Shown piece after piece: positions 25,885-43,311 of a stretch of 43,745 nucleotides of DNA. Each line of letters opens with the position of its first letter. Position 1 is the first letter of the stretch. Location of the stretch: NCBI RefSeq assembly GCF_000003605.2, contig NW_003116948.1, forward strand, positions 46,796 through 90,540, in the 5' to 3' direction. A program made the position numbers and the translations under genes. The notes under the pieces are model-generated. The model was not told where the DNA came from. It did not search any database and saw nothing but the letters and a program-made list of their open reading frames with translations. This DNA is from Saccoglossus kowalevskii (lineage: Eukaryota; Hemichordata; Enteropneusta; Harrimaniidae).

Positions 25885-27102
25885 CTAAGATATCAAATTT
25901 TCCACGCTGAAACTACTTGTACTTTGTCGGAGCGACGGCTCTGCTCGCCGCGTCTGTGAGCTCGCACCGTCCCGCTGATGTCTGCTGCTAACGCGTAAGT
26001 CTTCTGGCATCATGGTAGAGTACACTATGGCAGCCGTAGATGGTTTAACCGCCACGGAGGCTTGTGTGGCCTGGTGGGAATGTAGTTGGTGTGTCGTGCC
26101 GCTGATGTGACTATGCGCGCGGACGTGTTGTTGGAGAGCCTCCATCGCCGGGTACCTGTAACCGGACTGCAGGAGACTTTGGTAATAAGCAGGAATGATC
26201 GCGTGGTGCGCTGTAGCGGCTACCGCAACAGGAGAGAAAGCATGCAGACCCGTACTGGGGACAGGGTAACCGAGCAATTTTCGTTCATATAAATGTTGTT
26301 GCTGCTGCTGCTGCAAAATGAGTCTTTGGTGCTCGATACCATTTACCGTCGAAAATCCGTTGTGCCAGTGCGAAGGAGCCGACACCGCCACAGTGTGGAG
26401 TAGATGAGTCTCATCGTCCGATGATTTTCCAAGGATATTATCAATAGCGAAGGGACTGTTGAATTTTTTCTCTCCTGCAACCGCGATATGATGGCCAGTC
26501 AATCCAATCTCCTTGCTCTTTTTCGACTTTTTCCTGTTGATTCTTTTTCTTCTGCGCCGAAAGACGCCGTCGGCGAAAGTATACTCACTGTTGCAATTGA
26601 TTGTCCAGTAGTTGTCCTTTCCCCAAGGACGAGACGGGTCACGAAGGACTTTCGTGAAACATTCGTTGAGAGAGAGATTATGTCGGACCGAGTTCCGCCA
26701 ACCCGTGTAACTACCGCGAAAGAAGGGATATTTCTTCATCAGGTAGTCGTTGATCTCTGCCAAAGTTAATTTCCTGGTAGGCGATTCTTGTATTGCCGCA
26801 GCAATTAGTGCAATGTACGATAACGGTGGTTTGGGGTGTCGGTGGTATGTCGCCTTTCCTGACGAATTCCCAGAAGTAGTTGTCGTTGTTGTTGTGCTTG
26901 TGGAGATGGTATTTTCTATGTTTCTGTCTTCCATTAAATTGTCCTCGTGACTTTGATCATCAGACCGGTATGACAGCTCATCTTTAATACTGTGTTCGTT
27001 GTCTGACAAATCCATTTTCAAAATGATGTTCTCATTTTCGCTTGACGCAACTACACTTCTTGAAGGAACTATAATAGTTGATGGATCTGCTGTTTCGGGC
27101 AT
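25885..27102 (-). CDS. foxQ1: Forkhead box transcription factor FoxQ1
   Basis: Single-exon gene encoding a nuclear DNA-binding factor of 405 residues. The frame stays open upstream to a TTG at 27124-27126, but no ATG lies between the in-frame stop TAA (27154-27156) and the ATG at 27100-27102, so I start there. The N-terminus is acidic and Ser/Thr-rich with a Thr run near residues 70-76. The forkhead domain spans about residues 90-185. Its recognition helix NSVRHNLSLNECF is at 137-149, followed by KVLRDPSRPWGKDNYW and SEYTFADGVFRRRRKR, which are hallmarks of FoxQ1. A basic tract (182-198) is a likely nuclear signal. FAIDNILG (218-225) and the extreme C-terminal FSVENLIS (398-405) resemble the EH1 motif that recruits Groucho/TLE corepressors. 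A six-Gln run (264-269) and a His/Ala-rich C-terminal half are also present. The length matches FoxQ1 proteins. Forkhead identity is certain. FoxQ1 assignment is strong but rests on motif recognition. Confidence 0.9.
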   Translation of the reverse strand: MPETADPSTIIVPSRSVVASSENENIILKMDLSDNEHSIKDELSYRSDDQSHEDNLMEDRNIENTISTSTTTTTTTSGNSSGKATYHRHPKPPLSYIALIAAAIQESPTRKLTLAEINDYLMKKYPFFRGSYTGWRNSVRHNLSLNECFTKVLRDPSRPWGKDNYWTINCNSEYTFADGVFRRRRKRINRKKSKKSKEIGLTGHHIAVAGEKKFNSPFAIDNILGKSSDDETHLLHTVAVSAPSHWHNGFSTVNGIEHQRLILQQQQQQHLYERKLLGYPVPSTGLHAFSPVAVAATAHHAIIPAYYQSLLQSGYRYPAMEALQQHVRAHSHISGTTHQLHSHQATQASVAVKPSTAAIVYSTMMPEDLRVSSRHQRDGASSQTRRAEPSLRQSTSSFSVENLIS

Positions 27103-27340
27103 CTTCGGTCCGATGTCTCTTTCCAACTTCGTTTTTAAAAATACCAGGTATAATTATTGTCAAAAACGATCCTTATCGAAAATGATTTCGTTACCATAGG
27201 ATGTCGAAAACCAAAGTGCCCGCCGGATGACACTCACTAATCAGTATGTACTCCGCACATAAAGTTTGTAAATCTTCAGTGCGATGATGGCATTCACTCA
27301 GTGGTGTCTTCCTGTTATATACACCACAACCGTATACTGT

Positions 27341-27350
27341 GTATATAAGG
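27341..27350 (-). promoter_or_regulatory. Candidate TATA box of foxQ1
   Basis: On the minus strand this reads CCTTATATAC, about 240 bases upstream of the chosen foxQ1 ATG. A second TATATAAC lies about 25 bases further downstream. A start site about 30 bases downstream would give a 5' leader of roughly 200 bases. TATA-like words are common in this AT-rich sequence, so this is tentative. Confidence 0.25.
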
Positions 27351-28025
27351 CCTGGTGTGGAAAGTTATTGCCCTGCCTAGCAATTGCCTCGAAATGGCAA
27401 GCGTAGCAAAGGATGGATGGTGTTTTTGAAGCAGTATGTCGGCAGCAGGCGTGGCACACGTCCAATAAATTATGGCCGCCCTAAGTTGCTGTTATTTTTT
27501 CCTATGGCCGTCATATTGAATGAAGGTATTGATATCACTAATTCGACTACCACAGGGAGTGAAGAATTGTCTGCACTTTAAGATGAAGAGGACAGCTAAA
27601 TTGGTTAATCCGTGCTTATACTATTATATGTTAAGTGGTCGTGCCTGCAAGTTGCGGCATCATTCGCCCAAATAATACATTTAAATTACTGGGGAGGACA
27701 AAGAACTGCCGCGCATGTTGAGTGTGTACATAACATCAAGGCGAACAATTGAATTTTTTTATGTTGTTTTGTGCGCGTATTTTCTTCTTGATTGCTAAAA
27801 TTTGCAGCCAAATTTACGAATTGGGACGATCATGACACGACGTGATGTCGTTGACTTCTTCTCATTCACTGCATTTCTTGAGTCCGCAAATCAATTATTT
27901 ACTAATTATTGATTTTGATATTGCAGGATCATCAATCAATGGCAGACAAGTCTAGTCCATCCTATTCCAATAGCAGGACGCTGAACACTGTTGATACCAT
28001 AGGGACATCAATGCCCTTTCTCGTC

Positions 28026-28067
<42 letters not shown>

Positions 28068-30320
28068 CCAGCGAGTCTTCTGAGAGCTTTAACGTGGTTT
28101 TGCCACACACACCTGGTGAGTTTCCATTCAAACACTTAGGGGAGCTGGAGTCATTTGCAAACCAGAAAACAGACCGCCCCCTAATCCTCGTCGCTGATAC
28201 CCGATACACAAGGTTTTGTTGCCTGCATACAAGATGCAGGTAGCTTTACTTCTCTGTGTTCCACCCGACACAATTTCAAATCGTGTGTAAGACAATGGAG
28301 AGTATGTTTGATTAAAAAAACAAAGGAAAATGTAAGAGAATTCACACAAAAAAAGCATAAGTCAATAAACTTATACATTAAGTCGGCTGTCATAACGATT
28401 GCCACATAATTGAGGACCTTTCCATCCAGACTTTCACATTTGCTACCTTAAGCAGATTATATGATAACGTTTGGGAGTAAGTTGGCAAACAACAAGTGAC
28501 TCTGTGCGACCTCTGCCAGCCAGGTGACTTCATTTAGTCGCAGGTTTGGCCCAATGCGGAGACGAGGAAGCCTTGGGGTGTGTCATAAAATGTGACAGAC
28601 ACGAATGCGACCGAATGATTCGCTTCGTTTCACTATTTTACCAACCTTGTTAGCATTCTTCCGTCTTTTAGTAGTTGGGAGTTTAAATAGCAGAGCCGCG
28701 CTTTAAGTTTTTAGCAGCCAGCAGCAGATTACGATGCATGAACACGGCTTACCAACAAGCTACCATTGACAGAATTTGTTCATTTCTCATGCCCTGTTTT
28801 GTAAACATCGATTAATAACCGGCCAGTCATGTTTGTTTCCTATCTTGTCACTTTCCATATGATGAATGGGCAACGCAAACGCAAAGCAAACGAGAGGTGG
28901 CAGCTGTTTCCATGGCAGCCAAGAGGGTCAGAGTTGACACGGCGCGGCTTACGTCAACAGTTTTTCGTTGGGAGTGTAAATCGGAAGCTGTCATGTTTAA
29001 TCTAGTTAAACGTAACCAGGAGAAATGTTTAGAATTGAGAAATATTCTAACCAGCTACCCGAATTCATCATATCATATACTATCATTACTAATATTACGA
29101 GGCGAGGGCTCTTAAACAAATAGAAAAAGAAATTGTTTAATTTTGCGCTAAATTAGAAACTGAAGGTGTTTGATTGATGACTTGGTTTGCTTAACAATCA
29201 TCGAGAACACGATGGGCGAACGAGTTCTATATGCGAATGCTAAGTATTACCGCATATATGGCCGCACCGTGGAAAGCCCGTTGATATCAAACCGTTATAG
29301 TATCTGGTATTTCTGGGGGAAAGCTGCACCAAATATGAGCATTTTTGGATAATTCGAACGTATCTGCCATGCGTAATTTAAATTTCTCGCGCATTTTATC
29401 GAGACAGTGACATTGCTCGAAAATGCCGTTGAGTCATCGCCCTTTCGCAGTGATCACATGGCAGTGGACGTCTACGCGGCGCGTTTTAATTAAATAATTA
29501 AAGATTTAATGATGGAATAATATATATTTTTTTCAGAAAATGTATCCCCATAAAAAACGAACGTTCAAATGTTAAATTTAAAATGTCCCGTCATTCCAAG
29601 CGTTATTAGGAAACGTTTCCCAATCATGTTGGCTAGCGTCGCTGTTTCCGTCTCATTTAGATCGCTGGTTCATAAGTATACAGTACTCACAAGCGATTTT
29701 CAGTAACAGGGTTTAGGTGTATTGCGCCCTCTAGTGACAACGTGGGTGTTGTATTCTCTGCATACTGGATTTGTAAAAATCGTCGCATGTACAAAACATC
29801 CAAGCTACTCCATCATTGCAAACACCCTCAAAAAACTAATGAGTGAATTCCCGTGCACTATGAGATCTCGCGTGACGCGTGAAAGGCGCTATACGTACTT
29901 CTACCGCAAAAATCTAATGATTTAATTTTCGATTTTTTTTATATAGCTCAATGTCGCAATTCCTATCTTTCAGAGAGAATATGACGTTGAGATATCTTTA
30001 ATTCATCAAAATTGACCATCATATAGCACATTTCTAAGCGTGGAAATACCCCCCAAATGTTGTTATGTTCCGTTTCACGCATACTGTGAGATCTCGCAAT
30101 GATCGGAAAATGATTTGATTGAAATTGGCTGCCAAAAAAACAATACCACACCTGTACGTGATATAATGTGAGCGGAATACAACCCGAGAAATATTGAATT
30201 GGACATTGCAATGTGATTTAACACAGGTTATTGGTTTGTGTACATTCGGGTTTCTATCTATGGCAACTAGGTACTCCAAAACATGCACAAAATATTGTTT
30301 GTTATCGTTCTATTTTTTAA
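27351..30320. other. Upstream intergenic region between the two Fox genes, no gene recognised
   Basis: No supported coding sequence. It contains the (TC)n tract listed separately and ordinary AT-rich DNA. Because it is 5' of foxQ1 it is a natural place for promoter-proximal control elements, but I cannot single any out. Confidence 0.5.
28029..28065. repeat. (TC)n microsatellite
   Basis: A pure TC dinucleotide tract of 37 bp. On the minus strand it is (GA)n, the type of sequence bound by GAGA-type factors in some animals. It lies about 930 bp upstream of the foxQ1 start codon. Any regulatory role is speculative. Confidence 0.97.
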
Positions 30321-30324
30321 TGTT

Positions 30325-33300
30325 CATATACTAGTCAGTTACGTAAACAAGGTCAGTTACGAAAACGGTGTTAGATACTAACTGGTCAGTTACGAACACA
30401 AGGTTACATAATAGTCATTTGCGAAAACGGTGTTAGATACTAGTTGGTTACGAATACAAGAGGAGATACTGGTCAGTTACGAGAACAAGGATATATGCTA
30501 GTCAATTACGAACACAAGATTAGATACTAGTTAGTTAAGAAAACAAGGTTAGATACTAGTCAGTTACGAACACCAGGTTAGATACTAGTCATTTACAAAC
30601 ACAAGGTTAGATACTAGTCAGTTACGAACACTATGTTAGATACTAGTCGGTTACGAAAACAAGGTTAGATACTAGTCAGTTACGAAAACAAGGGTAGATA
30701 CTAGTCAGTTACGAAAACAAGGTCAAATACTAGTCAGTTACGAATACAAAGTTACTTACTAGTCATGTACGAACACACTGTTAGATACTAGTCAGTTACG
30801 AAAACAAGTTTAGATACTAGTCAGTTACGAACACAAGGTTAGATACTAGTCAGCTACGAAAACAAGGTTAGATACAAGTCAGTTACGAAACCAGGGTTAC
30901 ATACTAGTCATTTACGAAAACAAGTTTAGATACTAGTCAGTTACGAACACATGATCAGATACTAGTCAGTTACGAACACACGGTTAGATACTAGTCGGTT
31001 ATGAAAACAAGTTTAGATACTAGTTGGTTACGAACACACGGTTAGATACTAGTCAGTTACGAACACAGGGTTAGATACTAGTCAGTTACGAACACAGGGT
31101 TAGATACTAGTCAGTTACGAACACAGGGTTAGATACTAGTCAGTTACGAACACACGGTTAGATACTAGTCGGTTATGAAAACAAGTTTAGATACTAGTTG
31201 GTTACGAACACACGGTTAGATACTAGTCAGTTACGAACACAGGGTTAGATACTAGTCAGTTACGAACACAGGGTTAGATACTAGTCAGTTACGAACACAC
31301 GGTTAGATACTAGTCGGTTATGAAAACAAGTTTAGATACTAGTCAGTTACGAACACAGAGTTACTTACTAATCAGTTACGAACACAGGGTTAGATACTAG
31401 TCGGTTATGATAACAAGTTTAGATACCAATCAGTTACGAACACAGAGTTACTTACTAGTTCGTTACGAACACAGGGTTAGATACTAGTCAGTTACGAACA
31501 CAGGGTTAGATACTAGTCAGTTACGAACACACGGTTAGATACTAGTCAGTTACGAAAACAAGGTTAGATACTAGTCAGTTACGAAAACAAGGTTAGATAC
31601 TAGTCAGTTACGAACACAAGGTCAAATACTAGTCAGTTACGAATACAAAGTTACTTACTAGTCATGTACGAACACACGGTTAGATACTAGTCAGTGTCGA
31701 AAACAAGTTTAGATACTAGTCAGTTACGAACACACGTTAGATACTAGTCAGTTACGAACACAAGGTCAAATACTAGTCAGTTACGAACACAGAGTTACTT
31801 ACTAGTCATTTACGAAAACAAGTTTAGATACTAGTCAGTTACGAACACAAGGTTAGATACTAGTCAGCTACGAAAACAAGGTTAGATACAAGTCAGTTAC
31901 GAAAACAGGGTTACATACTAGTCATTTACGAAAACAAGTTTAGATACTAGTCAGTTACGAACACATGATCAGATACTAGTCAGTTACGAACACACGGTTA
32001 GATACTCGTCGGTTATGAAAACAAGTTTAGATACTAGTTGGTTACGAACACACGGTTAGATACTAGTCAGTTACGAACACAGGGTTAGATACTAGTCAGT
32101 TACGAACACAGGGTTAGATACTAGTCAGTTACGAACACACGGTTAGATACTAGTCGGTTATGAAAACAAGTTTAGATACTAGTTGCTTACGAACACACGG
32201 TTAGATACTAGTCAGTTACGAACACAGGGTTAGATACTAGTCAGTTACGAACACAGGGTTAGATACTAGTCAGTTTCGAACACAGGGTTAGATACTAGTC
32301 AGTTACGAACACACGGTTAGATACTAGTCGGTTATGAAAACAAGTTTAGATACTAGTCAGTTACAAACACAGAGTTACTTACTAGTCAGTTACGAACACA
32401 GGGTTAGATACTAGTCGGTTATGATAACAAGTGTAGATACTAATCAGTTACGAATACAGAGTTACTTACTAGTCCGTTACGAACACAGGGTTAGATACTA
32501 ATCAGTTACGAACACACGGTTAGATACTAGTCAGTTACGAACACACGGTTAGATACTAGTCGGTTATGAAAACAAGGTTAGATACTAGTCAGTTACGAAC
32601 ACAGAGTTACTTACTAGTCATTTACGAAAACAAGTTTAGATACTAGTCAGTTACGAACACAAGGTTAGATACTAGTCCGTTACGAACACAGGGTTAGATA
32701 CTAGTCAGTTACGAACACACGGTTAGATACTAGTCGGTTATGAAAACAAGGTTAGATACTAGTCAGTTACGAACACAGAGTTACTTACTAGTCATTTACA
32801 AAAACAAGTTTAGATACTAGTCAGTTACGAACACAAGGTTAGATACTAGTCAGTTACGAACACAGAGTTACTTACTAGTCAGTTACGAACACAGGGTTAG
32901 ATACTAGTCGGTTATTAAAACAAGTTTAGATACTAGTCAGTTACGAACACAGAGTTACTTACTAGTCATTTACAAAAACAAGTTTAGATACTAGTCAGTT
33001 ACGAACACAAGGTTAGATACTAGTCAGTTACGAACACAGAGTTACTTACTAGTCAGTTACGAACACAGGGTTAGATACTAGTCGGTTATTAAAACAAGTT
33101 TAGATACTAGTCAGTTACGAACACAGAGTTACTTACTAGTTCGTTACGAACACAGGGTTAGATACTAGTCAGTTACGAACACACGGTTAGATACTAGTCG
33201 GTTATGAAAACAAGGTTAGATACTAGTCAGTTACGAACACAGAGTTACTTACTAGTCATTTACGAAAACAAGTTTAGATACTAGTCAGTTACGAACACAA

Positions 33301-33382
33301 GGTTAGATACTAGTCAGTTACGAACACAGGGTGAGATACTAGTCAGTTAAGTAAGATATGAGTCAGTCACAAAAACAAGTGC
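30325..33382. repeat. Minisatellite of about 105 units of 29 bp with higher-order structure
   Basis: Tandem units of 29 bp run for about 3.06 kb. Each contains GATACTAGTCAGTTACGAAC followed by a variable ACA(AGG/GGG/CGG) junction. The period was measured directly (GTCAGTTACG at 31081 and again at 31110). Variant classes recur in order: CGGTTATGAAAACAAG, GAGTTACTTACTAG, CAGCTACG and TAGTTGGTTACG. TAGTTG recurs at 31021, 31195 and 32035, giving steps of 174 bp (6 units) and 1014 bp (35 units less one base). Edge units are the most degenerate (30325-30500 and 33345-33382). The unit has stop codons in every frame, so the array is non-coding. It lies between two divergently transcribed Fox genes. 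Confidence 0.97.
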
Positions 33383-33861
33383 TAAGCTCTCACTAGAAAA
33401 AGTATACTTAGACCCAAAATCATGTTACTTCCAACTTTCCTAGCCATAATATTACTCTGCCACCTCTAATACTAAAATACTATTCCATCGAGACTCCTCC
33501 ACGCCTCGACTGGTGGTCAGAAACGTAGAGGCTGACGTAATTGTAAGTATTGGCCAATTGGATGACCAGCAAAAATGATTTTCAAAAGATTTCCGACATG
33601 ACGATACAAGTGCATTGTGCGTCACAGCGCCACCAATCAGGGGTTTGGTCAGCTAATTTTGTTCAGATTGTTTTCGAGGGGCCCCCTCTGCCCCCGATGC
33701 CGCCGCCACTGAATAATAGTTTAGGCAATTCAAAGACAGTACTGTCGGCGATTTAGGCTTAAAAAAATATACAATTAGACAAAGCACACAGTCTATCTAG
33801 ATAAGGTGTGTTCAGACACCAAGGTATATGGGCAATCTCACAAGACCGTTTCTAGGATAAT
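33383..33861. other. Short non-coding stretch with a GC-rich repeat fragment
   Basis: No gene is recognised. Bases 33645-33712, ending in GATGCCGCCGCCACTGA, resemble 37923-38001, ending in CGTGCCGCCGCCACTGA. This suggests a dispersed repeat fragment of unknown class. Confidence 0.45.
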
Positions 33862-33993
33862 ATTATAGGCCTCCCATTTTTCGCGTCACGATGTGTTTGA
33901 TGTGGCTCCGTGTGACGTATATGACGCATGAAAATCGTGGCATTGTTTGCTTACAAGAAACTCGTAGTGCGCCTCGTCGTGGCGGCGTTTTAA
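33862..33993. mobile_element. Degenerate MITE-like element related to copy A (copy B)
   Basis: The interior aligns with the element at 22510-22646: GTGTGACGTATATGACGCATG here against GTAGCGACGTATACAACGCGTG there, then CATTGTTTGCTTACAAGAAA against CATTGTTTATTTACATGAAA. The right end, GCGCCTCGTCGTGGCGGCGTTTTAAA, corresponds to the right terminus of copy A. The left end (TATTATAGGCCTCCC) is degraded. At about 132 bp it is close to the length of copy A. It has no coding capacity. Confidence 0.5.
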
Positions 33994-34864
33994 AGCTATT
34001 CGTTTGTTTAATGTATGCACATGTGCAATCTAGAGAATTGTAAAGCCGCGCTTTAAAAAGATAAGTGTTCGCTCTATAACAGAACAAATCAGCAAAAAGT
34101 TGGGACAGACTCAAGTTGAGACAGTATTATTTGCATCAGAGTTCACAGATTTTGTTTGCGTTTAGTAATTTTCATTCGGCTACCTGTCGTAAATTAAGCA
34201 TCACGCCACGGGATTGGTAATGTATGTTCAATGTACTAGTATTATGGGAGGGAAATTCATATATTGAATATAATGGATAATATTAACACATTGGAAATTA
34301 ACTGAAATAAAATTGAGGATTTATACCAATATATGACATTTTTTTCTATGTCACCGAACACAATTTCGAGGTACAAAAATATTATAACACGAGTGCAAAC
34401 ATTTAATAAACAATTTATATTTTGGACACATAGACTGTAATATCGACTTTGATTTGGAATATACCTAGATATGATGGTGTGACCGAGCGTAAACATGGCC
34501 ATACTCACCACATACTTAAATGGTTTTGTTATAATTACCTCAAATATCTAGAAATCGCCATACATGTATTCACCCCAGCACCTCCATTCAGACGCATTCT
34601 ATTCGTTCGCCGTTGGGGGCGACCGCCAACGAAGCTGATTTTGTTTACATTTTTTTAACAATGTAATTTGAGCAGCAACGACCTTTGCGGTATTAATTTA
34701 GGAAATACGTGTCCATAAGTAATGTACCATCGAATATGTAGGATAATAGTTTGCAGACGGCTGATAAAAGAAATGTTAGTTGACCAAAAATTCATTTCCC
34801 AGCTGCCGAGAGGTTGTTTTCGTACGCGTAGCATGAACATGAACACATTTTTCTGAACCACGAA

Positions 34865-35030
34865 TTTAAAGCGGGGAGTCGTCATCTGCGCATGCGTCAG
34901 ATGGCCATAGCGTGTCACTGTTTACAAACAAGCTTCTACCCAGGAGCCTTTGAGTTTTTAGCGTGTGTTGTTATCGTCGCTTGGGACTCAATTCCCGCGC
35001 GTGTGCAGGTGACGACCCTCCCGCTTTAAA
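34865..35030. mobile_element. MITE-like element with TTAA-type termini (copy C1)
   Basis: It starts TTTAAAGCGGGGAGTCGTCA and ends GACGACCCTCCCGCTTTAAA, an inverted repeat of about 20 bp. Both termini carry TTAA immediately outside AGCGGG, consistent with piggyBac-type target sites. Length is 166 bp with no coding capacity. The interior matches 35600-35726 but not the interior of the 22.5-kb copy, so there are two subfamilies with shared ends. Confidence 0.65.
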
Positions 35031-35599
35031 CTCAGTATTACTTGGAATAAAAGCTATGATAAAACATAAATAACACGTAGATCGTACCTGGAACATTGAT
35101 AAATATATTTTGTTTATTTGACTATACATCCATGATGAATTGACCTACAATTGTTGTAGTTCGACTGTTTCCGGTGGAGTGAACACGTGTAGTTTGGAGA
35201 CTGCCGCTGAATTCATAAAACTAGATAGATGTTCCAATTGGGATAAGCACAGATTGAACAGCCCTATCTGAAGCGAATAGTCACATAGCAGTGGAAGTTA
35301 CGTCATCCTTATTTTTGACTTTCACACATTCTAAAGTAAATATTCTTAGTTAGCGAGCTGCATTGTGGGAGTTCCTCTATGTCGCACGGCTTCAAACTTC
35401 CATTTGGGATCTCACAAGAAGATAATAATTTCAACATATATTTTACCATCGCTTTTCAAATTATTCAATTCATTTCTGATGTTTGTATTATATTGTGATC
35501 TAGTTGTCTGAAATTTTCAAATTTCAAAACATTTCGTTGTACTTTTGTATCCTTTGTATAATTCAGTCTGTGAAACTTCGTTAAAAGTAATATCACAAT

Positions 35600-35726
35600 A
35601 TTAAAGCGGGGGAGTCTTCGCCTGCGCATGCGCCTTGCGCCCATGAGCCTCTGCGTTTTTGGCGTGTGTTGTTATTGTCGCGGCTTGGGACTCAATTCCA
35701 GCGCGTGCGCAGGTGACGACCCTCGA
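35600..35726. mobile_element. Truncated MITE-like element related to C1 (copy C2)
   Basis: Aligns to 34865-35030 through TTAAAGCGGGGGAGTC, TGCGCATGCG, GCGTGTGTTGTTAT, CTTGGGACTCAATTCC and CAGGTGACGACCCTC. About 30 bp is missing internally, and the right terminus is lost after GACGACCCTC. It lies in the same orientation about 735 bp downstream of C1. Whether it arose by segmental duplication or independent insertion is unclear. Confidence 0.65.
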
Positions 35727-35912
35727 CGATTCTTCTTCGTATGTGTATACTGTATATGTGTGTGTTGTTTGTGAGAATATACCAAGGTGAACGTAATGTC
35801 ACGCCACTTTGAACTTTAGATGAACTATGCATGCAAAGTATTCTTATTGAAACAATACTTCGCGTCAATAATGGACAGCCCCGGGAGAATAGAACCGAGC
35901 TGAATGGGGCGT

Positions 35913-36300
35913 TTTATTATTATTATTATAATTATTGACCTTTATTGCAGATCAAGCTAATAGACATAATATAGAAATCTAAAATTGGCAAAACATATAT
36001 AATGACATAGAATATTACACATATTTCCGTTTTCTTCACATATGCCCGATGAGTGATTTATAAAAAAAAATATCACAGTTCAAAATATTCTTTAAAATAT
36101 AGTTGGTACTCGGCAAAATGTGCTTAGAAAAAATAAAACATCATTTGTCTAAGCTTAAATTTGAAAATTGTCTACATGTAACGAAGCAAATGTCTCTGGA
36201 ATACATGTACTGCTTATGATCATTGTGGGATATATTATATAACATAATAACTGCATTATTTTAAGCTACACGAATTGCATGCATGTTTGCCACATTGTAA
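35913..36300 (-). mobile_element. Probable LINE 3' end (minus strand), coding part not recognised
   Basis: Read on the minus strand, this ends with TCTGCAATAAAGGTCAATAA followed by an (ATA/AAT)n tail at 35917-35937. A poly(A)-signal-like CAATAAA followed by a short trinucleotide tail is characteristic of CR1/L2-type non-LTR retrotransposon 3' ends, and the plus-strand LINE at 39.3 kb ends in the same manner. I saw no reverse transcriptase coding sequence upstream of it, so it would be a 5'-truncated copy. The 5' limit is a guess. Confidence 0.4.
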
Positions 36301-38780
36301 TTACAGATGAATACAATACAGGGTTGAACAGTAACTACGAAAAGGACGTAAATACTAGTATACCAATATAAGAACAGCTACCAAATCTACGCACGTAACG
36401 CACCAGCAGATTGGCTCTAACGTAGCCACCACGCAGCTAGTTTTTTTAAATACAAGTATTGTCCTGTGTAAAATAATATCCTAAATAATAATACACACTA
36501 ACAATTTTAAGGGGCTACCTATTAAGATACACGTGGGGGGCACGCCAAATGCCGGGGGTCAGGGGTATATATACAAACTGATTTATTGATATTAAACATA
36601 ATATCAAACTCAAAAACATATTTCTTACAAGCGTTCACAATACGTTTAAGATTTAACGTGATCGTCTACATAGAACATATGATCAATATCGTTAAGATCA
36701 AGACCAACACTAATAATTAAGATTAAGATTAACGTTGAAGATTGAAAAGCGAAGGCGTGAGTACTCCCCCCCCCCTCTTGCCGCACCCCGTTTGAAACAA
36801 CAATGTAGCTAATTTGCTGACTATTATAACCACAGTCACTCTTCTAGGACGGTTAGGAAGCGCCGCGTCGTTCTATTGTAACTACCCTCGTCTCCATAAA
36901 CATTGAAACAAAAGCGGTGTTAACGAGCTAAGACGTCATTAGCATAAAACTAGCGACGGAAAACACGCGATAAATCATGAGACATTGCGAGAGTTGCGTC
37001 ATTTTTTCCCACAAAGCATTGCAATACGTGGCACTTTACCCTTTCACCGAAGAGCAGACTCAAACACGGAAATAAACATGCTTTGTATATACACGTTTTT
37101 CCCCCGAGAAAATCTTGCTGTCTTGTATGGCATTCTGAAATTATTAATAGTTAATAGAATACTTATTATATACATTAGTATATCACCCACAAAATTCCCA
37201 CACACAAATTAACATCCGGGTATTTTATCCTGTCTCGCCCCTGTCTCGACTGAATCAAAAAGCAGTGCGAAATAAACCGTTCATAAAGTTGTCACAAAGT
37301 AAAGTCATAACAAAAAAGTATTCAAACGAAACTAAATATGACTCGTAGCACCGATACAGCTGAACGGGATGTGTATCAGTCGTCAAATAAAGCGAATGGA
37401 GGGATATGAAAACACAACAATCAAAAATCTCTTACGTCCGATTACTTCCATTGAAAACCATGCATTAAAGCAACATGGCGACCACCTCCATAGACGATGA
37501 AAACATGCAAAATTTCGCCATAAAGTGAATATAAAAACACACAAAAATAGCGAGAATGGACAAAGGAATATTGTAAAGGTTTGCAGATATCAATGTTTTT
37601 AGCGATAAAGTTGTTTTTACACTGAGCGAGGGGTTTATTTTACGGACCGAAAGACGTTTAGAGATCGAGAGAAAGAGACTGTCAATAAAACACCGTTTTT
37701 CTCGAGTAGAGTAACTGTGTTATAACAGTACATTAAAAGCGTCACAAAAATCGTAAAAACTTGACCAGCAATTAACGTTTAAACCTTGTGACTTATCTGG
37801 GACTGTCACATTTGTTTGGACCGGGAGGCTTTTTGTCCAGTGTCGCAGAGGCGACGGCAGGAAATTTTGCATGCGGAGGTGAGATCTGAAATCTACACCC
37901 TCTGAAACGCTATTTCCTGCATTTTGAGGGGCAAATTTTGCTAACACAAATGTTTTCAGCTTGATTGCTGCCCCCCCCCCCGGCCGTGCCGCCGCCACTG
38001 AGATGTTTTGTCCGGGAGACAAACACCGATTCGTTAACACGGCGATAAACGGTCCATCATTTCACAAACCGGCGGTATATATTTGATAATGTTTGAGCGA
38101 AAATAGCGGAAATAAAACACTGTGGAAAATTAATTAACGTTTAGAGTATGCCCTGTATTAATATGTGTACATGTACATATCACGCTGCGTAGTACGAAAT
38201 ATTAGGTTAAATTCCACGTGAGGACAATGACTGCGATACGAGACCACCAATAATCTTAATCGACATGAGTATGAGTAATACCGATCGACAGTTTCTGTCC
38301 CGAATATGAAACGTATTACATGGTCAAACCGAAATTTTATAAGTTACATGTATTGTATTGAAGCAGTAGTATTTTAAAATCACAGTGCCAAAGTATATCA
38401 TATGCATATTCAACTTCCCAACAGCATTGTTCCCCTGACACATTTAATGTGTGTGTTTTTGTTTGTTTGACAAAACGTCTCCCGGACCACAGTTCTTCTA
38501 TCCATGATAGAAAGACAGTGCCCGGACAAATCGTTTCCCGAGTTTTAATTCATGCGTCGAGTGTTTTTAATTTGTGCACCGGTGACGATGACAGTCAAAC
38601 CTATTACATATTGTTTTAATTCAAACGTCGCATTTCTACGAAATACCTTCTTTATTCTACAAATTGTCTAAGATCAATTATTGGAAATACGTTACTATTT
38701 CTCCTTACCGAATTTCGAAACAACAACAACGAAAGAATTGTGTACAATTAGTGTGTTCACACTCGGATTTACCGCGGCCA
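36301..38780. other. Non-coding stretch, no gene recognised
   Basis: Two C homopolymers (36766-36775 and 37971-37981) and the GC-rich repeat fragment near 37923-38001 are present. A 106-codon minus-strand open frame at 37720-38040 overlaps that fragment and reads Gly/Ala-rich through the C-run. I regard it as repeat-derived or spurious. Confidence 0.45.
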
Positions 38781-38799
38781 AAGTATTCACCACCGAAAC

Positions 38800-39341
38800 G
38801 TCGGCCCTAGAAAAACATTCGAATATACTTCAAACGTATTGCTTGTTTAAACAAGATTTAATATGTGAAAGATATCTTTCTGCTATTTCGTTGGCTACTC
38901 CTGTCTATTCATGTGCTATAACTAGACTTAGAATTTCCTGTCATCCCCTAGAAATTGAAAATGGTAGAACATTGAGTATTCCACGTGACCAAAGGTTATG
39001 TCCATTTGGTTGCAGGGTCACAGAGGACGAATACCATTTCACTATGATTTGTCCAAAATATGAAGCAATTAGACAAAAATTCTTACCAAAATAGTATTGT
39101 TCGGCACTAACCAAGATGAAATTCATTGCATTACTACAGAGTACTAACTCGTATATTTTATTAAGTTTGGGTAAATATTTGTTTAAGAGTTTTCATTAAC
39201 AGAGAAACTGAAATGGAAGTATGATTTGAAGTATATGTATCTTGTAATTTTAAAGCGACCGTGTGTAATTTAAGTTTTGAAATGTAACAGTACTTTAGGC
39301 CGGTGGCCATATAGTGCGGAATAAAGAAATAATAATAATAC
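38800..39341 (+). pseudogene. 5'-truncated LINE (CR1/L2-like) C-terminus plus 3' UTR
   Basis: The reading frame ending at TAG 39092-39094 encodes the region typically found C-terminal to the reverse transcriptase of CR1/L2-type LINEs. It has a QTYCLFKQDL..ERYLS block, RLRISCHPLEIENGR, then LCPFGC...DEYHFTMICPKY, a CxxxC-H-C zinc-knuckle-like cluster. The same frame continues past the TAG with family-like sequence (MKFIALLQSTN, LGKYLFKSF) to TAA at 39197-39199. The TAG is therefore a disabling mutation inside the ORF. A 3' UTR of about 140 bases follows, ending GCGGAATAAAGAAATAATAA, the usual AATAAA plus (AAT)n tail. The 5' part is missing. Domain identity is recognised from pattern only. The 5' boundary is approximate. 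Confidence 0.75.
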
Positions 39342-39740
39342 AGCATTGGTTGACTAATAACGGGCTTACATTGGATAAAAACAAGACTAAGTGCATGTTT
39401 TGGGAAACTTTTGGAAATTTATTGTACATAAACATAGCAAATTCAATGATTACTAAGTATATGTCCAGAAACTTACATAACTTGGCGTATGGTTTGGGAC
39501 AATTGAGAAAACAAAATGAGTAACAAAATTTCTGGAATGTTAATATTGAGCAGACGTCGGCGGTTTATCCTAAAATATATTGCAAACCTGCTCTTCAATT
39601 CAAAGGTGTCACCTGTGTTTGAGCTCAGACTAAATTTTACTAGCCTGAGGTTTGAGTATGCAGACTGTGTACGTCATAACTGTACACGAGGTAAAACAAA
39701 AGCGAGGTCTATTCGAAAGTGTAAGACAGAATGATTGTTA
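39342..39740 (+). pseudogene. LINE reverse transcriptase fragment, frameshifted
   Basis: Immediately after the (AAT)n tail of the preceding element, one frame reads IQHWLTNNGLTLDKNKTKCM, the block following the catalytic motif in CR1/L2-like reverse transcriptases. After the stop at 39521-39523 a second frame (from 39516) continues with NKISGMLILSRRRRFI and FEYADCVRHNC, resembling the thumb-side FDYAD..W.NC block. The order is that of one RT split by a frameshift. Both ends are missing: no catalytic (F/Y)xDD box and no C-terminal zinc region. It is dead. Confidence 0.7.
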
Positions 39741-41699
39741 TGTAAATTAGGTTGGTTGTCATGTGAACAATACATGTACATGTCTGAGCACAAGTACATG
39801 TACTTAGTACTCGCTCTCATTTTTAGCACCCCCTTCGTTACCTTAACGATCCAGTCTTGTTTCATCTTCGCAAAACTACATTACTAGGCAAGCTAATCGC
39901 AGTGGATTGCATGTGCATTCCTACATCAAAAACGTAAATAAATAAAAGGGGAAATAATTGTCAAAGTGCTAAAACGTGGACTCGTAATAATTGAGAGACT
40001 CCTAACATTTTTAAATCCAATTTTATAAAAGTTATATTTGTTGTAATTCTAAGCTATATTTAGTCTTCCTTATTTCATTTTGTATACTATTTTGCAACAC
40101 TTTAAATGTGCGTAAATATATATATGTTATAGGTCCTCAACAGAAAACATTTATATAATGATATTAGGTAAATAAATAGATAAACAGAAATTTAAAAAAG
40201 GGAATGGAGAGACAGAGGTAATATAATCGCCTTTATTTGGACCATGAAATTAAAAGCAAGCCTGCAACGTATGTTTGAATAATGTAGAAATCATTAACTT
40301 GGAATGTTTTGTGGTTAATATCAATGCCTATAACCCTTCAAATACTGATTTCCAGTTTGCGGAAGTTAATCAAGCATGTACGCATGTAGGCGGGAACTCA
40401 GGGCGGGAACTAAAGGGTGTTAGGCTGGAAATGGGAGGGGTCGTACTTTCATTTGTTAGCTACATAGGAAGTAACAGCTTCTAATTGGTATTTGGACATT
40501 AATTGGCCTTCATCAAGACATGATTGTTTTACGAGATTACATGGGATTAACATGTGCTGATTAATTTTGGATGTCAGGCAGGATTAAGATCTGTCAGCGG
40601 GATCAATCTCTGTGAACAGAGAAGAGTGACGTGATCAACTTCATTTTTCTGAATAAAAAAAAAACTCTGTTGACTTATCGAAATAATTAAATGTTTTGCA
40701 TTTTCGCGCTCACTCCAGACTTTTGTTAGCTCTGCCATTCGGAGTATTTTTAAACTTGAAACATAAAAACTTAAAACGGCTAATGTATGAATCTACTAGT
40801 ACATTTGTACATGGTCGTGTTAGTACGTTCATGATTTATGTGTGACCACATATATCCGCGAAATCTGAATACACGTAGAATGTTGTGAATAAATAGTAAC
40901 AATGGTCTTTGGACGAAAACGTCGTGCACTGGAAAATGGTCCGTTTTGATGGTAGTATGATAATGAAATTTGTTCCGAATGTAGGAACTTAGGACAACGA
41001 CATTTTCGGTCTGCATTTCAAACCCAAACTATTTTGACCAGGCTTTGTGCAGAAGGCGGATTTCGTATGTTTCTAAGTAATTCGTATGTTCTCAGACAAC
41101 TAATAATTCGTTTCCTAGGGAATGTTTTATTAACATGGTGGCCGAAACTTCCGTGAGCGAAAGCGAAACTTCCCCGTGCATTCCGTTGTTGTAGAAATTC
41201 GACGATGATTGTGTGTATCACGTTTAATGATGCTCTGTCGGGGTATCTAGAAGCGATGGTGCGTTTTGCGACGTGCCGGGGTTACACGGCAAAAAAAAAA
41301 CTTCCCTGATACATTCGTGGCATTTGCGCCTGCATCAGATAAACGTGTAGGCACGTTCATGATTGACAAGAATCTCAATGGGATAATCTCTATTTTGAAG
41401 TGTGTGCACAAATTTACCAAACCAGCTGCCCCGCCTCTGTTATTTTAGCGTCAAATGTGAAAATCCGTTCGCTTGGTTGACATTTGAGTGACATGGCACC
41501 TTCTCGGTGAAGAATCAATTTCGGAGAAGTTTAGACATTTAAAAAAAATGTCTGTTATAATGATACTAATACGAATCTGACTTGTATCGTTCTAGTGTTT
41601 TGTCTTTTCACTGTCGGGGACGGTGGTCTATAGTCTAGCACCACTGAAAAAAAAAGTCTAGCACAGTCGACTGTCTAACCATATTGTTTATTTTCCGAT
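39741..41699. other. Non-coding stretch upstream of the second forkhead gene
   Basis: No gene is recognised. A cluster of ACATGT words lies at 39769-39805, including the perfect 14-bp palindrome AAGTACATGTACTT at 39792-39805. The remainder is AT-rich with short spurious frames. Confidence 0.5.
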
Positions 41700-41872
41700 T
41701 TAAGATATGACCACGAGGGCGTCCCCACACCTACTTTCTCTTTGTTTGGAGGTGTGAATTGGCGTCTTAGGATGTCTCAGGAACACGTAAAAGAGAGAGT
41801 GAAACCTCACAACCGCATTCGTCCGGTCCGCTCCGCGCTCTCTCTCTCGAACGGTACGCTTATATCTCCACC
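41700..41872 (+). promoter_or_regulatory. Presumed 5' leader / proximal promoter of the second forkhead gene
   Basis: This is the sequence just before the ATG. It becomes GC- and CT-richer (CCGCTCCGCGCTCTCTCTCTC at 41829-41849) than the AT-rich DNA upstream. A CT/GAGA tract close to the start codon suggests a promoter or leader. No TATA box is evident. The transcription start cannot be placed. The ATG context CTCCACCATGA is a good Kozak match. Confidence 0.35.
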
Positions 41873-43311
41873 ATGAAAGACCAAGACATCGGCGAAACTT
41901 CGCAAGGCTCGGCTTCATCGACAACGAGTGGGTTTACTCGTCCTCACTACCGTCGCAGAAACAAACCACCCTTCTCATACGCAGAACTCATCAGCTTGGC
42001 AATTTTGTCTTCTGATTTCAAGAAACGGACTCTCCGTGAAATTTGTGAGTATCTCGAGTGCACGTTTCCCGTCTTCCAAGGGGAGTACACGGGATGGAGA
42101 AACAGTGTCCGACACAACCTCTCTGCCAGCGGCCGTTTCGTTAAAGTTCTTCGCGATCGCAAACGTCCATTTGGGAAAGACAACTACTGGGCCATAAAGC
42201 CCAATACTAAGCACGATATACAAAAAATGCAAGAGAGGCTTGATGAATATCTCTCATCGAGCAAGGGTAAAAACACTGCGAATGAGCGAAAAGAAAGACG
42301 ACCGAACACGTCGCCTGCATCGGGCACTGTTAGGAACAAACAACTCCCGGTCGCGCCACGCCAGAAAGCTCCACACTCCGGTGTCTCTGTGTATGATAAG
42401 ACACCACGAACCGAAGCATCAATGGACACGTACCGAAATCATTCTTTCACAAACTTCCAACAGCCACGTACGGTGACACTGCAACACGACCAGTATTACT
42501 ACGACTACACAGCATATCAGCAGTATTGCGCATATCAGGCTGCCAGCATGTACCGGTACAAGCCAAGTGACTCCAAAGTGCCGGACCAGAACTCAGTAAC
42601 CACTGCTCAAGTCAACGGTTCACCCTGCCAATCGCCATACCAGTTCGGCCGAATATACCAGTACAACCGAGACCAAATGACTCCTTTATCGGAAACTGCT
42701 TATCTAACTGACGACGATGAGTCTATGTACACCAGTGGTGCAAGTAAACTACAAGACCCGACCCAAATGCAGTCTGACTTCGAATGCAAAACTTTCCAGG
42801 TGAGTTATACATTGAAATATATTGTAGTTGCACACATTCTTTTTAACTTCAGGTTCTATATACTGTTCATTCCAAACTAAACATGTGACATATGATGAAA
42901 CATACGACAATTATTGCCATTTGCTTTATCTGAGAAATAGTGGACAGCACGAATTTGTACGTAATTGTTTGGAATTACATTTTTGCGAGTACGGCATATA
43001 TATATATATATTGTAATGTAATTTTGTATTCTTTTTTTCATTTCCAGACTCTCATCGACACCGACACGAACACGATATCCACTGGTGCGCATGTTGTTTG
43101 CAAGACTGAAGATTGCGGCAACGGCGAATCAACTTACGATAGCGGCAGTTCCGACGAACAACGAGGAGAAAGCTGCATGTATGACACGGTCTCCATGTTC
43201 GAATACGAAAAGGGAACCTTCCAAACCGTGAGCGATATACTAAACGGAGTGACCGAACTCATTGATGACACCAGTCTGGCTTCGCTCACTGAGATGACAG
43301 ATGGACCCTAA
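41873..43311 (+). CDS. Divergent forkhead transcription factor (FoxQ1-like or FoxH-like), two coding exons
   Basis: Exons at 41873-42799 and 43048-43311 give 396 residues. The donor is CCAG|GTGAGT and the acceptor TTTCCAG|ACT, with a phase-0, 248-bp intron. The start has context CCACCATGA. The forkhead domain is at about residues 31-112, with the recognition helix at NSVRHNLS (77-84). Against the foxQ1 product of this window I count about 49 of 84 identical residues without gaps, including YTGWRNSVRHNLS, KVLRD, RP and GKDNYW. It lacks the usual LSLN after the helix (LSASGR instead) and the TFADGVFRRRRKR wing tail, which is replaced by HDIQKMQERLDEYL. A Tyr-rich segment lies at 207-230 (YYYDYTAYQQY). 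The tail encoded by exon 2 is acidic and Ser/Thr-rich (VSDILNGVTELIDD), possibly an activation region. Forkhead identity is certain and subfamily unresolved: FoxQ1 paralogue or FoxH-type. No PPNK-type SMAD-interaction motif was seen. Confidence 0.92.
42800..43047 (+). other. Intron of the second forkhead gene
   Basis: A GT-AG intron of 248 bp with strong donor GTGAGT and a polypyrimidine tract (TTCTTTTTTTCATTTCCAG) before the acceptor. It contains a 16-bp AT dinucleotide tract at 42996-43011. Reading straight through meets a stop at about 42878-42880, which would give a 335-residue product if the intron were retained. Splicing rejoins a clean frame of 87 further codons. Confidence 0.85.

What the first reader, a model, noticed from the sequence alone, without database searches (positions are those of the whole stretch)
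25885..43311. Head-to-head pair of linked forkhead genes, one a fast-diverging copy
foxQ1 (minus) and a second forkhead gene (plus) are the only genes in 43.7 kb, with start codons about 14.8 kb apart and no gene between. Their forkhead domains align ungapped over 84 residues with about 49 identities by hand, including 13 consecutive residues in and before the recognition helix. Known bilaterian Fox clusters combine FoxQ1 with FoxC, FoxF and FoxL1, and the second gene is none of these. The simplest reading is a tandem duplication of foxQ1 followed by rapid divergence. Linkage to a FoxH gene is the alternative.
Basis: partly seen in the sequence, partly recalled or inferred. Interest (0 to 1): 0.75.

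Follow-up and report, generated by a model that had tools for sequence, protein, structure and literature searches.

The report
Old, fast-evolving FoxQ1 sister gene
An invertebrate-like genome carries, 15 kb from its foxQ1 gene and transcribed away from it, a second forkhead gene that looks like an old duplicate of foxQ1 which kept the DNA-reading helix but lacks the repressor motifs, so it may be an extra member of a very old animal gene cluster.

Summary
Observation confirmed. Gene 1 (25885-27102, minus) is FoxQ1: closest to the rat FoxQ1 domain, FoxQ1-type wing 2, two eh1 motifs. Gene 2 (exons 41873-42799 and 43048-43311, plus, 396 aa) shares 49 of 82 ungapped domain residues with it, 13 of them in a row. 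Starts lie 14,771 bases apart. Maximum likelihood joins gene 2 to FoxQ1 (96/91); FoxH comes next (87/80) and shares with both a one-residue wing-1 insertion absent from 18 other domains. FoxH membership is not supported: 0 of 6 FoxH-private and 2 of 6 FoxQ1-private residues are shared, and neither FoxH1 DNA-contact change is present; but the AU test does not reject FoxH (p 0.055). Gene 2 does not look like a recent copy of this FoxQ1. The contig also carries two IRF loci, neighbours of the Fox clusters in human. Gene 2 lacks eh1 and ends in an acidic exon, so I infer an activator reading FoxQ1-type sites. In passing: 87 of 119 forkhead matches lie in tandem arrays on six short contigs.

The parts
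25885..27102 (-). FoxQ1, single-exon ORF, 405 aa from its first ATG
   Evidence: ORF 25885-27126 from TTG; first ATG at codon 9; length; Pfam Forkhead 105.5 bits; best PDB match 1kq8, 180.5 bits, through the FoxQ1-type wing 2 EYTFADGVFRRRRKR
26530..26853 (-). FoxQ1 forkhead domain with flanks
26428..26451 (-). eh1-like Groucho motif FAIDNILG of FoxQ1 (residues 218-225 of the ATG protein)
   Evidence: PMC1939712 lists FAIDSILS-type motifs for FoxQ1 (passages)
25888..25911 (-). second eh1-like motif FSVENLIS at the FoxQ1 C-terminus (residues 398-405)
41873..42799 (+). Gene 2, exon 1 (forkhead domain plus Tyr-rich middle region)
41960..42220 (+). Gene 2 forkhead domain (Pfam stretch, residues 30-116)
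42800..43047 (+). Gene 2 likely intron, GT-AG, phase 0
   Evidence: sequence only, no RNA data
43048..43311 (+). Gene 2, exon 2: acidic C-terminus, 87 aa with 18 D/E and 3 K/R; only match in the genome is itself
27103..41872 (.). Intergenic stretch between the two start codons
30352..33349 (.). 29-bp minisatellite, 103 copies, inside the intergenic stretch

Best explanation
Gene 2 is a paralogue of FoxQ1 that arose by duplication within the ancestral Fox-cluster neighbourhood and then diverged fast; the pair stayed linked in divergent orientation. Shown: the two ORFs, their likeness, the best-tree placement beside FoxQ1, IRF loci on the same contig. Inferred: the duplication predates most substitutions private to this genome's FoxQ1, so it is old. 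Inferred mechanism: gene 2 keeps the three base-reading residues of helix 3 (Asn, Arg, His) and should bind ordinary forkhead sites, overlapping those of FoxQ1; FoxQ1 keeps two eh1-like (Groucho-recruiting) motifs and is a likely repressor, whereas gene 2 has no eh1-like motif and ends in an acidic exon, so it most likely works as an activator that competes with or complements FoxQ1. Confidence 0.7 is for 'FoxQ1-lineage paralogue'; the activator step alone I would put near 0.35.
For: Best PDB match of gene 2 is the FoxQ1 domain 1kq8 (103.7 bits); three FoxH1 chains score 87.7, 80.1 and 67.3, the best FoxD-type chain 75.6. Identity over 82 residues: rat FoxQ1 51, own FoxQ1 49, FoxH1 41, 35, 30. 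ML placement with FoxQ1 96/91, kept in five variants that hold FoxQ1. Private residues: 2 of 6 FoxQ1-private shared, 0 of 6 FoxH-private; wing-1 insertion shared with FoxQ1 and FoxH only, 0 of 18 other rows. At 10 sites fixed differently in FoxQ1 and FoxH, gene 2 has FoxQ1's residue at 7, FoxH's at 0, neither at 3. Age: of 17 sites where own and rat FoxQ1 differ, gene 2 matches rat at 4 and own at 2; tree puts it with rat, 85/73. Setting: two IRF loci at 451 and 462 kb of the same contig; IRF4 and IRF8 lie by the human Fox clusters (PMC1634998, passages). eh1-like motifs: two in FoxQ1, none in gene 2. H3 residues: PMC9701222 (section 11).
Against: AU tests do not reject FoxH membership (p 0.059, 0.055, 0.168) or a clade with FoxQ2 (0.096). 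With FoxQ1 rows removed gene 2 goes to FoxH (64/77); without the three diagnostic columns support for FoxQ1 drops to 91/82. Its branch is very long. Only vertebrate FoxH was in the trees, and I saw no other gene that looks like FoxH among the genome's forkhead matches (class labels mine, fragments on C1550 and C2595 not classed), so 'fast-evolving FoxH' stays open. 4 of the 6 FoxQ1-private residues and FoxQ1's wing 2 are absent. The C-terminal regions of the two proteins show no likeness (261 of 1000 shuffles score as high), the N-termini only a weak one (15 of 1000). Some of the FoxQ1-like residues may be old states. The order own FoxQ1 / rat FoxQ1 / gene 2 is unresolved (p-AU 0.062 and 0.066 for the two alternatives). 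EXOC2, a FoxQ1 neighbour in human, is on another contig.
Confidence: 0.7

Rival explanations
1. Gene 2 is this animal's FoxH (Nodal/Activin effector class), fast-evolving, sitting next to FoxQ1 because FoxH itself arose from FoxQ1 by tandem duplication in the bilaterian Fox cluster.
For: Fish FoxH1 is closest to FoxQ1 outside its own class (106.5 bits against 100.4 for FoxC2; own FoxQ1 is its best match in this genome); FoxQ1+gene 2+FoxH form a clade (87/80, 90/82) and alone share the wing-1 insertion. No other FoxH-like gene seen (labels mine). AU test not rejecting (p 0.055); with FoxQ1 removed gene 2 joins FoxH at 64/77. Tunicate FoxH-like proteins also lack eh1 (PMC1939712 passages).
Against: 0 of 6 FoxH-private residues, 0 of 10 fixed-difference sites with FoxH's residue. 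The two FoxH1-specific changes (Asp in helix 3, Leu/Ile in helix 2; PMC9701222) are Asn and Cys in gene 2. Fish FoxH1 matches gene 2 with only 88.6 bits, below FoxQ1 and eight other Fox genes of the genome (one of them by 0.1 bit). No PPN-type Smad motif (motif recalled).
Confidence: 0.18
2. Recent, species-level tandem copy of this very FoxQ1 that diverged within a short time.
For: Linkage at 14.8 kb; long branch; clade {own FoxQ1, gene 2} not rejected (p-AU 0.077, 0.066, 0.494 core only).
Against: Gene 2 shares slightly more residues with rat FoxQ1 (51) than with its neighbour (49), and at the 17 sites where those two differ it matches the neighbour at 2 and rat at 4; it has an intron and an 87-aa last exon without counterpart in FoxQ1; a self-comparison of the window shows no DNA match that links the two genes or their surroundings.
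Confidence: 0.08
3. A divergent member of another class (FoxQ2, FoxF or an orphan) that only looks like FoxQ1 through shared old residues.
For: FoxQ2 clade not rejected by AU (p 0.096); FoxF is the next relative of FoxQ1 and FoxH in the tree (97/97).
Against: lnL 9.99 (FoxQ2), 9.64 (FoxF, p 0.015) and 16.55 (FoxD, p 0.024) worse; FoxQ2 domains have a deletion where gene 2 has an insertion.
Confidence: 0.04

Closest known systems
FoxQ1 (Fox cluster Q1-F-C-L1)
   Same: Forkhead domain with two FoxQ1-private residues, Thr (YTGW) and Asp (GKDNYW), wing-1 insertion, ungapped alignment, position beside the genome's FoxQ1 on a contig with IRF loci
   Different: Wing 2 EYTFADGVFRRRRKR absent, no eh1-like motif, SLNECF after the recognition helix reads SASGRF, one likely intron, acidic C-terminal exon
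FoxH (FoxH1)
   Same: Wing-1 insertion; Tyr and Arg in the N-terminal loop (also in FoxQ1); no Leu after RHNLS
   Different: Helix-3 Asp and helix-2 Leu/Ile absent; 0 of 6 FoxH-private residues; no PPN motif
FoxS1 of vertebrates
   Same: An extra Fox gene in a Fox-cluster region; PMC1634998 considers it a possible obscured paralogue of cluster genes (passages)
   Different: FoxS1 is described in vertebrates, on a paralogon with IRF10 and MLCK2; gene 2 is FoxQ1-like and next to FoxQ1

Membership tests
FoxQ1 | Groups with FoxQ1 in a tree of clade-I domains | tested here: met
   96/91; 96/91, 99/99, 95/90; 97/95 and 91/82; only one FoxQ1 from another species in the tree; FoxH alternative not rejected (p 0.055)
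FoxQ1 | FoxQ1-private residues of the domain | tested here: inconclusive
   2 of 6 shared
FoxQ1 | Wing 2 EYTFADGVFRRRRKR | tested here: not met
   gene 2 reads TKHDIQKMQERLDEY there; hence filed as a FoxQ1 paralogue, not as a FoxQ1
FoxQ1 | C-terminal eh1 Groucho motif | tested here: not met
   none in gene 2, two in FoxQ1
FoxQ1 | Linkage to FoxF, FoxC, FoxL1 | tested here: inconclusive
   F-C-L1 (labels mine) lie on C4503 at 23.5, 73.7 and 103 kb; FoxQ1 and gene 2 on C1049; stretches next to the window and the start of C4503 read N; IRF loci on C1049
FoxH | Asp for Asn in helix 3 (GG/GT reading) | tested here: not met
   Asn in gene 2; feature from PMC9701222
FoxH | Leu/Ile for Tyr in helix 2 | tested here: not met
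   Cys in gene 2; feature from PMC9701222; which column it is, is my reading of the alignment
FoxH | Groups with FoxH1 in a tree | tested here: inconclusive
   not in the best tree; lnL 5.8 worse, p-AU 0.055; joins FoxH at 64/77 if FoxQ1 is left out; vertebrate FoxH1 only
FoxH | Long, ordered wing 2 | not testable with these tools
   structure prediction busy, then switched off
FoxQ2 | Groups with the genome's four FoxQ2-type domains | tested here: inconclusive
   not in the best tree; lnL 9.99 worse, p-AU 0.096; wing-1 deletion of FoxQ2 absent

The most novel reading that the evidence does not exclude
The locus preserves the birthplace of FoxH: FoxQ1 duplicated in place in or before early bilaterians, one copy became FoxH, and gene 2 is either that FoxH still next to its parent or a third product of the same burst. 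FoxQ1, gene 2 and FoxH would then be one cluster-born clade marked by the wing-1 insertion, and the Nodal effector FoxH would be a former member of the Fox cluster.
Probability: 0.2. Interest if true: 0.72.

Novelty: new variant of a known kind. Interest (0 to 1): 0.42.

Why it matters
The Q1-F-C-L1 cluster is traced to the bilaterian ancestor, and why it persists is debated (PMC9539403, PMC8918179, passages). A linked, old and fast-evolving FoxQ1 sister without the repressor motifs would give a further cluster member with which to test co-regulation, and the wing-1 insertion would be a marker tying the FoxH class to FoxQ1.

Tried and rejected
Recent copy of the neighbouring FoxQ1: disfavoured, not excluded. 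FoxF, FoxD: rejected by AU at 0.05. FoxT: passages of PMC8918179 place it near FoxN1/4, unlike this clade-I domain; not tested in a tree. Is gene 2 kin to the arrayed forkheads? In the one tree that held both, the array copy fell in the other main group. Smad (PPN) and eh1 scans of gene 2: empty. DNA shared by the two genes' surroundings: none found. EXOC2 lies on C205, so that neighbour does not support the linkage; EMC8/NOC4 and COX4 gave no match anywhere in the genome or controls and say nothing; the GMDS search did not complete. Phylum from mitochondrial genes: AAA reads as Lys at the conserved sites I looked at and COX1 has no AGA/AGG in 513 codons; no phylum claimed. Structure prediction: not available. 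Two array scripts failed on my patterns (in its second half).
Full report
What is there. The window is G000:C1049:46796-90540 of an unnamed 572-Mb assembly in 4,830 contigs, an animal by its genes. It holds two forkhead genes. Gene 1, minus strand, ORF 25885-27126, first ATG at 27102, is FoxQ1: its domain matches the PDB chain 1kq8 (HFH-1, that is rat FoxQ1; synonym and species recalled) with 180.5 bits, above FoxH1 (115.2) and FoxC2 (113), and the match runs through the whole wing 2. It carries two eh1-like motifs, FAIDNILG after the domain and FSVENLIS at the C-terminus, the first close to the FoxQ1 motif FAIDSILS listed in PMC1939712 (passages). Gene 2, plus strand, has its ATG at 41873 and an in-frame stop upstream; a phase-0 GT-AG intron (42800-43047) joins the listed ORF to the second one and gives 396 aa. 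Its last exon has no other match in the genome. Start codons are 14,771 bases apart, 5' ends facing.

No other gene reached a threshold in what I scanned: 0 tRNAs, 0 Rfam matches, and 11 distinct non-Fox ORFs without a Pfam match above cut-off, out of 183 stop-to-stop ORFs of 60 aa or more, three of which are frames of the Fox genes. Small or many-exon genes could have been missed. The ORF at 38672-39091 belongs to a dispersed repeat (150 scored matches among 1,136 candidates); I take it for a retrotransposon tail by eye. A 29-bp minisatellite of 103 units fills 30352-33349.

What gene 2 is. By search its best PDB match is the FoxQ1 domain (103.7 bits), then two FoxH1 chains (87.7, 80.1), then FoxD-type (75.6). 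I built trees from the window pair, 15 other single-exon domains of the same genome (class labels mine), one arrayed copy (dropped in later runs) and six domains read off PDB alignments (FoxQ1, three FoxH1, FoxC2, FoxD3); genes with a split or incomplete domain were left out. Result: {own FoxQ1, rat FoxQ1, gene 2} 96/91; with FoxH 87/80; with FoxF 97/97. The FoxQ1 grouping held without the array row (96/91), without FoxH (99/99), on the core domain only (95/90), under plain LG+G4 (97/95) and with the three diagnostic columns removed (91/82). Without the FoxQ1 rows gene 2 moves to FoxH at 64/77. AU tests: with FoxH lnL 5.8 worse, p 0.055 to 0.059 (0.168 core only); gene 2 outside a FoxQ1+FoxH clade p 0.040; with FoxF 0.015; with FoxD 0.024; with FoxQ2 0.096. 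So other homes are worse, but FoxH and FoxQ2 are not formally excluded.

Residue counts agree. FoxQ1, FoxH1 and gene 2 have one extra residue in wing 1; none of the 18 other rows has it. Of 6 residues private to FoxQ1 gene 2 has 2 (Thr of YTGW, Asp of GKDNYW); of 6 private to FoxH it has 0. Of 10 sites fixed differently in the two classes it has FoxQ1's residue at 7, FoxH's at 0, neither at 3; some of the 7 are likely ancestral states. The two changes that give FoxH1 its GG/GT preference (Asp in helix 3, Leu/Ile in helix 2; PMC9701222, passages and one section) are Asn and Cys in gene 2. Against this, FoxQ1's wing 2, four of its six private residues and its eh1 motifs are missing, so I call gene 2 a FoxQ1-lineage paralogue and not a FoxQ1.

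Age. Own and rat FoxQ1 differ at 17 of 82 sites; gene 2 matches rat at 4 and its neighbour at 2, and it is no closer to its neighbour (49) than to rat FoxQ1 (51). The tree puts it with rat FoxQ1 (85/73), but {own FoxQ1, gene 2} (p 0.066 to 0.077; 0.494 core only) and {own FoxQ1, rat FoxQ1} (p 0.062) are not rejected. I read this as a duplication that predates most changes of the local FoxQ1; the date is open.

Setting. The genome's FoxF, FoxC and FoxL1 lie in one orientation on C4503 at 23.5, 73.7 and 103 kb. The IRF search gave five matches, which I read as two loci on C1049 itself (451 and 462 kb) and one on C2729. In human, IRF4 lies by FOXQ1-FOXF2-FOXC1 and IRF8 by FOXF1-FOXC2-FOXL1 (PMC1634998, passages). 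C1049 is 0.08% of the assembly, so this is unlikely to be chance even though four neighbours were tried and answered: EXOC2 was elsewhere, EMC8 and COX4 gave nothing. GMDS did not complete. The stretches fetched next to the window and the first 4 kb of C4503 read N, so a join of the two contigs could not be examined.

How it most likely works. Forkhead proteins read TGTTTA through Asn, Arg and His of helix 3 (PMC9701222). Gene 2 keeps all three and the 13 residues around them, so it should bind ordinary forkhead sites, as FoxQ1 should. It lacks wing 2's basic run and any eh1-like motif, and its last 87 residues hold 18 Asp/Glu against 3 Lys/Arg. I therefore infer an activator that shares sites with a Groucho-recruiting FoxQ1. 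No binding, expression or structure result stands behind this step.

Literature. Searches of the held library for FoxQ1 with FoxH, linkage, paralogue or cluster terms (18 of 18 listed, 12 of 14, 15 of 442) and with IRF and synteny (1 of 1) listed no paper that, from titles and abstract starts, reports a FoxQ1-FoxH pair or a linked FoxQ1 paralogue in an invertebrate. I saw passages, not whole texts, of PMC9539403, PMC4077281, PMC12828049, PMC8918179, PMC1939712, PMC7535936, PMC9701222 (one section in full), PMC9269926, PMC3314550, PMC6824466 and PMC1634998; figures and supplements were not seen. FoxQ1 is reported lost in conchiferan molluscs (PMC9539403) and FoxH undetected in the hemichordate Saccoglossus and likely lost in ambulacrarians (PMC4077281).

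A larger surprise in passing. By my count, 87 of the 119 forkhead matches of the genome (matches, not genes; some are pieces of one unit) lie on six short contigs (C112, C3072, C4502, C2214, C3756, C434), head to tail in units of about 1.94 kb (1.81 kb in part of C434). I read DNA of three of the six contigs. The intact ORFs carry one forkhead and a C-terminal FSIAKIL motif, eh1-like by eye. The class is unresolved (nearest FoxL1 82/66; FoxQ2 not rejected, p 0.34). In 13 copies chosen for an open frame through that motif, pooled pN/pS over pairs is 2.1; counted by site, 43 of 382 non-synonymous and 7 of 101 synonymous sites vary (Fisher p 0.27), so no purifying selection is visible and no positive selection is shown. 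For scale, a 2025 survey names 13 as the record number of FoxQ2 genes in one species (PMC12828049, passages); one search for arrayed forkheads (15 of 18 listed) showed no such report among titles and abstract starts. Haplotypes or assembly duplication may inflate the count.

Noticed in passing
G000 contigs C112, C3072, C4502, C2214, C3756, C434 (loci L033, L034, L035, L040, L041 read from three of them): Tandem arrays of a single-exon forkhead gene, about 1.94 kb per unit, 93.9-98.6% identical over the unit-length matches in the fetched part; 87 of the genome's 119 forkhead matches, several broken; class unresolved, no purifying selection visible among 13 open copies.
   Followed up: partly
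window 30352-33349: 29-bp minisatellite, 103 copies, between the two Fox genes; the unit contains GGGTTAG.
   Followed up: no
window 38672-39091: ORF fragment of a dispersed repeat, likely the C-terminal tail of a retrotransposon reverse transcriptase (the name is by eye).
   Followed up: partly
G000:C4503:23501-103385: FoxF, FoxC and FoxL1 in one orientation within 80 kb: a partly conserved bilaterian Fox cluster in the same genome (labels mine).
   Followed up: partly
G000:C1049:451311-453361 and 461905-462060: Two IRF loci on the contig of FoxQ1 and gene 2.
   Followed up: partly
G000:C998:885957 and 912103: Two FoxQ2-type genes 26 kb apart; four FoxQ2-type genes in all outside the arrays (labels mine).
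   Followed up: no
L039 (G000:C4830, mitochondrial): COX1 lies on the opposite strand to ND1 and COX2 (gene names by eye except COX1).
   Followed up: no
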